Assembly: GCF_000820845.2 (NCBI RefSeq)
Contig: NZ_CBXV010000001.1
Coordinates: 372,001 to 436,000 of the forward strand
Length of the DNA: 64,000 nt
Source of the DNA: Pyrinomonas methylaliphatogenes
GTDB taxonomy: Bacteria; Acidobacteriota; Blastocatellia; Pyrinomonadales; Pyrinomonadaceae
Reading direction: 5' to 3'
Shown here: positions 61,898-64,000 of the stretch, in pieces
Numbering within the stretch: position 1 is the stretch's first letter
How the letters are laid out: every line of letters begins with the position of its first letter
Program-made: the position numbers and the translations under genes
Notes under the pieces: model-generated
The model's database searches: none
What the model saw: the letters and a program-made list of their open reading frames with translations, nothing else
What the model was told of the DNA's origin: nothing

Positions 61898-62437
61898 TCA
61901 GCAGGCGGGAGGAGCACGATTAGAATTGCCTAAGCAATAACCGGGCAGAGTTGATCGATTTTCGAATGGGATTCTCGCTCGCGCGGCGAAACGGGAGACG
62001 AGCAGAAGAAGAGGGCGTGCGGCGATAGCTTTATCGCCGCGTTTAATCGATGAAGCTGACCATCCCGAAAGCGCGGTGGCTAGATCAGAAAGACAGAATC
62101 CAGCCAGTGCGTCGTTTGGGGTCAGCGCTCGATCCCAGCTTTTGTGGCGAAGAAAAGAGGTTGGATGGTTGAAGACCTCGCGCTTTACCCAATCCTTGCC
62201 GCAAAATTTGTCTAGTTTAGCGCTGGCTGATGGCGGCGTCTTCTCGCGACTGCGAAGATCTAGATGGCGCGTGCTACCGGAGCAAGCTCTTGCTCGATGA
62301 GAACCGTTGCTCGTGAAACAGATTGACGCGCGCGCCGCAGAGTCGGCGAAAGCAATAGGCGCAATGCTCGCCAATAAAGCGAGCAGTAAAGTAATGAGCC
62401 CTCTGGAGCGAAAAGCTTTCGCGCGTAAAAAGCCCAT
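61898..62437 (-). CDS. Putative small exported protein, unknown
   Basis: A 179-residue ORF whose N-terminus looks like a signal peptide (basic MGFLRAKAFRSRG, then LITLLLALLASIAPIAFA). The rest has no recognisable domain, several Cys and a Ser/Arg-rich composition that could be chance coding. Support for expression is the near-consensus promoter directly upstream. There is no ribosome site, and the predicted transcript start is only about 4 nt before the ATG. It ends 204 bp before the receptor start. If it is not a gene, 61694-62645 is a ~950-bp non-coding stretch. Confidence 0.35.
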   Translation of the reverse strand: MGFLRAKAFRSRGLITLLLALLASIAPIAFADSAARASICFTSNGSHRARACSGSTRHLDLRSREKTPPSASAKLDKFCGKDWVKREVFNHPTSFLRHKSWDRALTPNDALAGFCLSDLATALSGWSASSIKRGDKAIAARPLLLLVSRFAARARIPFENRSTLPGYCLGNSNRAPPAC

Positions 62438-62447
62438 CGGCGCTCGG

Positions 62448-62477
62448 ATTATAGTTTCAGCTTCGCTCGCTCGTCAA
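62448..62477 (-). promoter_or_regulatory. Near-consensus sigma-70 promoter
   Basis: Minus strand TTGACG (62472-62477), 18-bp spacer, perfect TATAAT (62448-62453). The best promoter in the window by eye. It points at the 61898-62437 ORF and the receptor/PepSY pair beyond. Confidence 0.65.
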
Positions 62478-62643
62478 TAAACTGTGCGCTGCGATGACCT
62501 CACATGGCCTTCAGTCTCCGCGTGAAGACTTAGGTTGATCTTGAGAGCGAAGTCACGGGTGTTTGTTAGTCAGTTGCTTGGGCATTTACGAGAATCCGCC
62601 AAGAAAGCCCACCGTTCCTAAAAGCATGGACATTTATCCACGA

Positions 62644-62668
62644 CGTCAACCGAACGGCTCTGTTGACG
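62644..62668. repeat. Hairpin across the stop codon of the TnpB-like gene
   Basis: CGTCAAC (62644-62650) and GTTGACG (62662-62668) form a perfect 7-bp stem with an 11-nt loop. The TGA stop (62646-62648) lies in one arm. Such hairpins mark the ends of IS200/IS605-type elements, but could also end transcription. Confidence 0.6.
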
Positions 62669-64000
62669 ATTCGCGTTCGGGAATTTCACCCGAAACACCG
62701 AGTCGGCACGCTCCCGGTGGATCCACGATCTGACCGGAAGGTGGCGACCGTCGGTCACACTCGGTGTGTGCTCCATGCACCGCTCGCAGCGCCCTCAGAA
62801 CGCAAGCCCAAAACCGCCACACATGCTCGCCGCGATTCCTTGCAGGTAGCAGCAAGGTGACATGACGGCCCCCGCGTGTCGGAACACGCGCCTCGCTTCC
62901 AACGGGACGCTCCGCAAAACCCAATCCTCTGCGCGCGACCGCACACGCCGCGCCGACGTGTACGCTCACGCCATATCGAGTTGCATAGTTGACCGCACCG
63001 ATTACGCTCGTATAGGCGGCGCTCCGACGGATGACTTCCACGCCACGCCGACAACACGCCCGATCAATACAATCCAATATCTGAGAATACGAAAATGACG
63101 ACAACTCTCTGGCGCGATCAGCACCGACGCCCTCCAACTCCGCACGCTTGCGCGCAAAATCCAACTGCTCGATGACCACCGGAAGCCCGCGCTCGCGCGC
63201 TAACTCAGCCACGCGCGCACACGCTTGCATGATCACCGCACGCCGCTCGCCGCTCGTCTTGCCTCGAAGCCGCAACGGTATCAACCACCACTCGACGAGG
63301 TTGCCGTCGCCGTCCGTCTCCACCACCGCCAGATGATCCACGTTGACGTCAACGCCGATGGCCCCCAACTCGCGCCAAGTCGCCGTCGGCGGCAGATCCT
63401 CATCCACCGTGACAAACAGCCGCCAACTCTTCTCATCCCGCAAAAATCGATAACTGATCGCCCGCCCAATGCGCTTGGTCACACGGCGGCCACAACTGGT
63501 TGTCGTCTTTATCGTTATTGATTCTAGCGCGGCGATGATCTGTTGGTGTCCGTGGCGAAAGCGTATCCCGCCGATCTCTAGATATTTGCCGTATTCATGC
63601 GCCAGCGCGGGCGGCAGGCGCAACCTCAAGCGCAGCGTCCCGTCCTCAGCGACTGTGGCGACGCATGATTGGTTGCCGCCAGTTTCATCGCTGCTCCCGA
63701 CCACAAAGAACTGATTGGCGCGCGCTCTTCTCCACTCCTCTAGCCACTGCTCATGATCACGATAGCCGTTATCCTCAAGATGAAACTGCCGCCGAAAGAG
63801 CCGCCGCCCGCCAAAACAGATCCGCACACGCCCCTCACTTAGATCTCTCGTCAGAAGGTCGAGTCGCCGGCAGAGATGTTCGAGACGGCGCTTCTTTTCG
63901 TGAAGCGCTTTTGATCAGGGAGCGCGCCGCGCCAACCTCTTGATCACCTTGTGCGCGCGCGCGATGCGCCACCTTAACTCCTCGATCCGCTGCGGCAGCA
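62646..64000 (-). pseudogene. TnpB-related IS200/IS605-type accessory protein gene, interrupted and truncated by window end
   Basis: The open part (62646-63914) encodes a TnpB-related protein: ICFGGRRLFRRQFHLEDN, GSSDETGGNQSC, LRLRLPPAL, the RuvC-I region IGVDVNVDHLAVVE, RuvC-II VVIEQLDFARKR, and VHVGAACAVARRGLGF at the RuvC-III position. Reading on upstream in the same frame gives HEKKRRLEHLCRRLDLL, then an in-frame TGA at 63915-63917, then more family-like sequence (LPQRIEELRWRIARAHKVIKRL) to the window end. The gene is therefore broken by one stop, unless translation restarts at the GTG at 63827. No CxxC zinc finger is seen, and the third RuvC Asp is replaced by a His-containing motif. No TnpA is in view. 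Confidence 0.75.

What the first reader, a model, noticed from the sequence alone, without database searches (positions are those of the whole stretch)
62646..64000. TnpB-related protein with altered RuvC-III site, no zinc finger and an in-frame TGA
Seen: RuvC-I and RuvC-II acidic residues are kept (D160 and E220 counting from the GTG at 63827), but where TnpB has Asp-x-N-A-A the protein has H-V-G-A-A-C, and no CxxC pairs are found. Upstream the reading frame continues with family-like sequence after a TGA at 63915-63917. Inferred: a divergent branch of TnpB-like proteins, possibly not a normal guided nuclease, here inactivated or restarted internally.
Basis: partly seen in the sequence, partly recalled or inferred. 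Interest (0 to 1): 0.6.

Follow-up and report, generated by a model that had tools for sequence, protein, structure and literature searches.

The report
Broken IS607 TnpB-like guided nuclease gene
The sequence is a decayed copy of a mobile-element gene for a TnpB-like protein, a relative of CRISPR nucleases, together with its guide-RNA-like end; in most relatives compared, one of the three active-site residues is a histidine that is firmly kept, which suggests a working but unusual guided DNA cutter.

Summary
Read past the window edge, the gene is a 533-codon frame starting at window-equivalent 64247 and cut at codon 111, so the 63827 GTG is internal. It is a decayed copy of a zinc-finger-less TnpB branch carried by IS607 elements: 16 of 33 His-bearing loci have an IS607-type serine recombinase just upstream. 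His is not drift: the third position is His in 33, Asp in 9, Ala in 1 of 43 sequences (a sample gathered mostly with His-bearing queries), with the first Asp (38 of 38) and the Glu (41 of 41) invariant. The 3' end of the gene overlaps a covarying, pseudoknotted guide-RNA-like structure that ends at a GG followed by a pyrimidine in 36 of 36 GG-ending sites. "Not a guided nuclease" is therefore not favoured; likelier is a guided nuclease with an Asp-Glu-His site resembling T. thermophilus RuvC and Cas9. Cleavage is untested.

The parts
62646..63827 (-). open part of the tnpB-like frame downstream of the TGA (393 codons from an internal GTG): end of the N-terminal lobe and the RuvC domain
63915..63917 (-). 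in-frame TGA, codon 111 of the 533-codon frame, in a poorly conserved linker
63918..64000 (-). upstream part of the same frame lying in the window (it runs on to a GTG at window-equivalent 64247, outside the window)
63348..63350 (-). RuvC-I Asp codon (D160)
63168..63170 (-). RuvC-II Glu codon (E220)
62958..62960 (-). RuvC-III His codon (H290) in the place of the third Asp
62612..62694 (-). guide-RNA-like scaffold (right-end RNA, reRNA/omegaRNA) overlapping the 3' end of the gene
62676..62694 (-). hairpin P1 (62694-62689 with 62681-62676)
62644..62668 (-). stem P2 (62668-62662 with 62650-62644); the tnpB stop codon 62648-62646 lies in its 3' strand
62652..62657 (-). 5' half of the pseudoknot, CCGTTC in the P2 loop
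62612..62617 (-). 3' half of the pseudoknot, GAACGG; its last GG (62613-62612) is the inferred IS607 right-end core
62592..62611 (-). flank just outside the element: first base a pyrimidine (T), then the inferred guide
   Evidence: use as a guide is inferred from published IS607 systems

Best explanation
A decayed copy of an IS607-family element with no tnpA beside it. Its gene belongs to a broad zinc-finger-less TnpB branch and is cut by a nonsense codon at position 111 (shown). The element's right end encodes a guide RNA scaffold with hairpin P1, stem P2 and a pseudoknot to the 3'-terminal GAACGG, ending at the GG where the element stops (structure and boundary shown by covariation and by insertion sites; transcription and use as guide inferred). 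In intact relatives the protein would bind this RNA, find DNA matching the right flank (for instance the donor site left after excision) and cut it with a RuvC site made of Asp-Glu-His, the His holding metal A as proposed for T. thermophilus RuvC and Cas9 (cutting inferred). Cutting would favour retention of the element, as proposed for other TnpBs.
For: IS607 link: 16 of 33 His-bearing loci have an IS607-type TnpA ORF just upstream. Conserved site: His 33, Asp 9, Ala 1 of 43; first Asp 38 of 38, Glu 41 of 41; dN/dS 0.19-0.22 in three pairs. On a 34-row tree Asp/His needs 2 changes and well-supported branches force both, so the two residues have replaced each other. Fold: model of an intact relative, pLDDT 81.5, aligns to Cas12f1 (Z 16.1), ISDra2 TnpB (Z 15.4) and T. 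thermophilus RuvC (Z 13.5). RNA: 18 matches, 95.2% of cells paired against 76.9% shuffled, covariation 0.484 against 0.144, 0 of 500 shuffles as high; the model finds it at E<1e-8 at the 3' end of 5 relatives it was not built from. Ends: pyrimidine after GG in 36 of 36 GG-ending sites. Precedent, read in passages: third residue His in Deinococcus-Thermus RuvC, active, H143D more active (PMC3834835); SpCas9 H983 superposes on it and H983D cuts (PMC8112549); IS607 TnpB ISXfa1 has GG ends, a fixed right-flank base and a needed pseudoknot (PMC10711439).
Against: No activity data. SpCas9 also needs D986, three residues after H983; this branch has Ala there in 33 of 33 His rows, so the analogy is incomplete. 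Cas12m with His at the first place does not cut, and Cas12m with a DED site does not cut either (PMC10442227, PMC11013384). The RNA model matched at E<=0.01 in 16 of 30 His-bearing loci given to it, 6 of them used to build it; it missed 14 (L012, L015-L018, L021, L022, L024, L052, L054, L065-L068) and all Asp-bearing loci given; in L017, L021, L022, L066 and L067 I saw the pseudoknot halves only by eye. The His-to-H143 match is counted back from the end of an alignment range, not taken from a printed residue alignment. RuvC-like folds not known to me as nucleases (SPT6, Tex) match the domain about as well as RuvC. The His share leans on His-bearing queries.
Confidence: 0.6

Rival explanations
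1. RNA-guided but non-cutting: the His site grips metal and DNA, so the protein blocks transcription or marks sites, as Cas12m and TldR proteins do.
For: Cas12m2 with a His-Asp-Asp site binds one Mg and silences without cutting (PMC10442227); RuvC inactivation occurred independently several times in Cas12 (PMC12669027).
Against: First Asp and Glu stay invariant (38 of 38, 41 of 41) and the third place is His or Asp in 42 of 43; in HDD-type Cas12m it is the first two residues that changed. 16 of 33 His loci have IS607 tnpA just upstream, so they sit in mobile elements rather than host regulatory loci.
Confidence: 0.3
2. The 393-aa product is made by internal restart at the 63827 GTG and works as a short protein.
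For: The frame after the TGA is open for 422 codons; a GTG lies at 63827.
Against: The lost stretch matches the N-termini of intact relatives. Other copies are broken in other ways: two overlapping frames in L007, L014, L016, L018, L048, a stop within the match in L002 and L037.
Confidence: 0.03
3. The TGA is read through or is an assembly error, and the gene is whole.
For: It is the only stop in a 533-codon frame.
Against: Little either way: no reads are available and recoding was not tested. No tnpA lies beside the gene, and the matches in the one same-genus genome are fragments.
Confidence: 0.07

Closest known systems
IS607 TnpB with its reRNA (ISXfa1, ISFba1)
   Same: IS607 serine recombinase, right-end RNA, GG ends, fixed right-flank base, pseudoknot (PMC10711439, PMC11061315; passages); same overall fold (8iaz Z 12.2)
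   Different: ISFba1 has a DED site (D194, E290, D371) and many TnpBs have a zinc finger; here His at the third place and no CxxC pairs
T. thermophilus RuvC and Cas9 RuvC site
   Same: His at the third metal-binding place of an active nuclease (PMC3834835, PMC8112549; passages)
   Different: SpCas9 keeps D986 after the His; here that place is Ala; they are not TnpB/Cas12 proteins
Cas12m (type V-M)
   Same: small TnpB-derived RNA-guided protein, some with a His in the RuvC site
   Different: His is at the first place (HDD), CRISPR arrays and a zinc finger (GoCas12m) are present, no dsDNA cutting (passages)
pro-Fanzor / Fanzor TnpBs
   Same: IS607 lineage with an altered RuvC site (PMC10711439)
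   Different: there the Glu has moved next to the zinc finger; here the Glu is in the canonical column and the zinc finger is gone
TnpB-like gene beside a CRISPR-like array in Thermus phages Lalka (PMC11437467)
   Same: same zinc-finger-less family by sequence
   Different: Asp at the third place and no tnpA found in the held flank

Membership tests
RNA-guided TnpB (NCBIfam NF040570 / TIGR01766) | score over the curated cut-off | tested here: not met
   window piece 39.6 bits against 100 and 28.3 against 32; of 9 relatives 0 pass NF040570 and 5 pass TIGR01766
RNA-guided TnpB (NCBIfam NF040570 / TIGR01766) | RuvC-I Asp and RuvC-II Glu | tested here: met
   38 of 38 and 41 of 41 rows with a residue there, of 50 rows
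RNA-guided TnpB (NCBIfam NF040570 / TIGR01766) | third Asp (DxNAA) | tested here: not met
   His in this copy and in 33 of 43 rows with the column, this copy included
RNA-guided TnpB (NCBIfam NF040570 / TIGR01766) | zinc finger between RuvC-II and RuvC-III | tested here: not met
   no CxxC in the C-terminal half in 48 of 50 ORF rows, one CxxC each in L051 and L041; none in the 393 aa
RNA-guided TnpB (NCBIfam NF040570 / TIGR01766) | right-end RNA overlapping or following the gene's 3' end | tested here: met
   this copy and 15 other His-bearing loci of 30 at E<=0.01; covariation
RNA-guided TnpB (NCBIfam NF040570 / TIGR01766) | RNA-guided DNA cleavage | not testable with these tools
   needs a bench assay
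IS607 family element | serine recombinase TnpA with the element | tested here: inconclusive
   none beside this copy; just upstream of 16 of 33 His-bearing loci; a full IS607 element with tnpA and canonical TnpB lies elsewhere in the genome
IS607 family element | ends at a GG dinucleotide | tested here: inconclusive
   right end met: copies in two genomes stop at the same GG and then differ; left end of this copy not found
Cas12m | RuvC triad of a Cas12m clade (HEK, HQK, HDD, DED, NED, DND) | tested here: not met
   D-E-H
Cas12m | CRISPR array beside the gene | tested here: not met
   no short-spaced repeat array in the 9,871 bases around the gene, one two-copy family only
pro-Fanzor/Fanzor | Glu moved to six residues before the zinc finger | tested here: not met
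   Glu in the canonical column in 41 of 41 rows with a residue there; no zinc finger
TldR (nuclease-dead TnpB repressors; definition recalled) | loss of the nuclease site | tested here: inconclusive
   D and E invariant, third residue changed to His; activity and gene regulation not tested

The most novel reading that the evidence does not exclude
A widespread TnpB lineage has exchanged the third catalytic residue between Asp and His at least twice and stayed an active RNA-guided nuclease: the TnpB/Cas12-side counterpart of the His in Cas9 and Thermus RuvC, without the further Asp that Cas9 keeps, the His perhaps slowing or tuning cutting or turning it into nicking.
Probability: 0.5. Interest if true: 0.65.

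Novelty: new variant of a known kind. Interest (0 to 1): 0.5.

Why it matters
TnpB is the ancestor of Cas12, and its studied members use a DED site; changed sites are usually read as dead or rearranged. A branch spread over several phyla that holds His as firmly as its Asp and Glu, and has exchanged it with Asp, makes the tolerance of this active site directly testable, and offers zinc-finger-less compact effectors (about 490-600 aa) with a short, clearly bounded guide scaffold. It also shows that an odd active site in a TnpB should not be read as loss of the guided function without looking at the right-end RNA.

Tried and rejected
Pfam gave no family for the window piece and only sub-threshold TnpB-type or unrelated matches for 9 relatives. 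Rfam up to E 1 gave no match to the RNA in 5 loci. phmmer against PDB with one intact relative gave only weak matches to unrelated proteins; a 29-row profile reached Cas12f at 1.1e-8, the printed alignments stopping at the TS before the zinc-finger place, so the third residue is not shown in them. The own left-end region has no second copy in the own genome or G102, so element length and TAM were not settled. A third stem (TGGA..TCCA) was left out of the RNA model: its register differs among copies, and a similar palindrome in the right end of the canonical IS607 element suggests a TnpA site instead. L012 and L013 were in the first RNA alignment (11 rows) and dropped from A4 (9 rows) for long inserts. 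A8 (18 rows) was made from 18 sources picked because they had matches. The first tree (38 rows, 3 changes) held one wrongly framed row (L071); I dropped it, both canonical TnpBs and the gappy L055 for (34 rows). A hidden canonical Asp and internal restart were considered and rejected (see above).

The 2023 PNAS census of TnpB and Cas12 is not held; I recall that it reports rearranged and inactivated sites, and it may already include this branch. Searches in the open-access library in whose listings I saw no title or abstract start on a D-E-H TnpB: (the one paper uses DEH for a transposon). I saw passages of eleven papers and no whole text. So I do not claim that it is unpublished.

Full report
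What was checked. The ORF 62646-63827 on the minus strand, D160, E220, the H-V-G-A-A-C stretch (His 290), the lack of CxxC and the TGA at 63915-63917 are all there. The contig of the window's genome runs 3,870 bases further; in it the frame continues upstream of the TGA to a GTG at window-equivalent 64247, so the gene is a 533-codon frame with one stop at codon 111. The lost stretch matches the N-termini of relatives (TYQTRL....GLTARQFNSVRV.LEGK). The protein search finds one copy in the genome, and, among 119 genomes of the order, the own genome and pieces in one other; among 396 of the phylum, the own genome and one more.

What family it is. Relatives were found in genome contigs (4 loci), viral contigs, plasmids (62 and 70 records) and phages (4 records). 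Most of these searches used His-bearing queries, so the sample leans to His-bearing relatives; the pattern of the widest viral scan (18 loci) did not include the third active-site column. An HMM of 12 rows was run on all ORFs of at least 120 codons in the loci then held. After merging pieces, 50 different ORF rows were read, fragments of frameshifted genes and near copies included: third residue His 33 (33 loci), Asp 9 (9 loci), Ala 1, no residue 7; first Asp 38 of 38; Glu 41 of 41. The Asp rows are two cyanobacterial plasmid genes (L025, L069) and a viral contig that groups with them (L051), a Thermus plasmid gene (L019) and a Thermus phage gene (L023) with three viral contigs that group with them (L053, L058, L059; groupings), and a further viral contig (L060). 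In the C-terminal half 48 of 50 rows have no CxxC. Full-length His members include L008, L011, L012, L013, L017, L043 and L070. The branch is rare in sampled genomes: 1 of 398 in the phylum of L007's genome, that genome itself.

Where it lives. phmmer with three TnpA queries found an IS607-type serine recombinase just upstream of 16 of the 33 His-bearing loci (broken in two pieces in L016 and L063) and at none of the 9 Asp-bearing loci (flanks are limited, so absence is weak). Five of these are annotated as IS607 family transposase. The window copy has no tnpA beside it; the same genome has a complete IS607 element with tnpA and a canonical zinc-finger TnpB on another contig, which could supply transposase in trans (inference).

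The guide-RNA-like end. A DNA search with window 62400-62960 in 60 family genomes showed that the last part of the gene and the bases after its stop recur in the own genome (C4, 93 bases, 90%) and at four places in a genome of the same genus, and in none of the other 58. The copies stop at the same point..GGAACGG or nearly so, and then differ. Many relatives in other phyla have the same kind of end. On 9 sequences, hairpin P1, stem P2 and the pseudoknot pair in 91.8% of cells against 76.8% in shuffles, 11 of 19 pairs changing on both sides. A covariance model with P1 and P2 but not the pseudoknot was built. In 43 sources it gave 25 matches up to E 1; among those below 1e-8 are five relatives not used in building it (L045, L048, L070, L043, L046), each at the 3' end of the tnpB-like ORF. 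Of 30 distinct His-bearing loci among those sources, 16 match at E<=0.01 (6 of them used in building) and 14 do not; no Asp-bearing locus given does. Eighteen matches aligned to the model pair in 95.2% of cells against 76.9%, covariation 0.484 against 0.144, none of 500 shuffles as high; the pseudoknot alone pairs in 95.3%. The 18 sources were picked because they had matches, and the alignment leans to P1 and P2 by construction, not to the pseudoknot. Searching 7 genomes gave matches in all 7, with seven copies in one genome (G122) that share the scaffold and differ after the GG, six of them at contig ends. Of 37 right ends read, 36 end in GG and all 36 are followed by T (24) or C (12); the second base is free. 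L011 ends in AACC. Some of these ends were located by a string ending in GG, so the GG is not an independent count; the pyrimidine is. This fits the fixed right-flank base of ISXfa1 (PMC10711439, passages).

The active site. A model of L008 from 15 rows (all from the window or the search for related loci) has mean pLDDT 81.5 and pTM 0.68. It spans the Cas12f/TnpB fold: SpCas12f1 Z 16.1 over 36-490, ISDra2 TnpB Z 15.4 over 36-455, T. thermophilus RuvC Z 13.5 over 303-454 against 1-158; the RuvC-like folds of SPT6 and Tex, not known to me as nucleases, match that domain about as well. D309, E369 and H439 of L008 lie on the first RuvC strand, at the end of a later strand and at the start of a RuvC helix. 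Counting back from the end of the RuvC range, H439 falls at position 143 if nothing is gapped there; H143 is the third active-site residue of that enzyme, is Asp in most species, and H143D raises activity (PMC3834835, passages). SpCas9 H983 is superposed on the same site; H983D still cuts and H983A is sharply reduced (PMC8112549, passages). SpCas9 also needs D986; the matching place here is Ala in 33 of 33 His rows. The exchange of His and Asp (2 changes forced on a 34-row tree) and dN/dS of 0.22, 0.19 and 0.20 in three pairs (the last pair is this broken copy with the frameshifted L007 and is near saturation, dS 2.3) favour a kept metal-binding role over decay. Against it stands Cas12m, where a His in the first place goes with loss of cutting, and where DED members do not cut either (PMC10442227, PMC11013384, passages).

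Verdict. The window feature itself is ordinary: a dead copy of an insertion-sequence gene. The family it exposes is less ordinary: zinc-finger-less IS607 TnpBs with a held Asp-Glu-His site and their own pseudoknotted right-end RNA, without an Rfam match in the five loci searched. I rate RNA-guided binding as very likely, cutting as more likely than not, and internal restart as unlikely.

Noticed in passing
L032 363-2031 (own genome, other contig): Complete canonical IS607 element: tnpA (184 aa) and zinc-finger TnpB (396 aa, RDVNAAKNL). Its right end shares a GGACAAATGTCCATG-like palindrome and GAACGG with the window element, so one TnpA may serve both.
   Followed up: partly
L101 (own genome C4:580838-580920), L102 (G102 C489), L104 (G102 C18): Stand-alone copies of the guide-RNA scaffold without the gene, each with its own right flank; stems partly decayed. 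Relics or orphan guides.
   Followed up: partly
L023 4411-4871, L053 2672-3059: TnpB-like genes of Thermus phage Lalka8 and of a viral contig are followed by CRISPR-like repeats (8 and 7 exact copies of a 22-base core); noted for Lalka phages in PMC11437467. They belong to the same zinc-finger-less family, with Asp at the third site.
   Followed up: partly
L063 about 1757, L013 about 1725, L012: Left-end homology of Pseudomonas elements begins near GGGCTTYT.. (by eye); a candidate left end and hint of a GG-containing TAM, not tested.
   Followed up: no
L020 (Calothrix plasmid): The one member with Ala at the third site (NSASSAAMVIGRR), D and E kept; a possible truly inactive case.
   Followed up: no
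window 61898-62437 (-): A 179-aa ORF just beyond the element's right end (MGFLRAKAFRSRGLITLLL..), hydrophobic start by eye; not searched.
   Followed up: no
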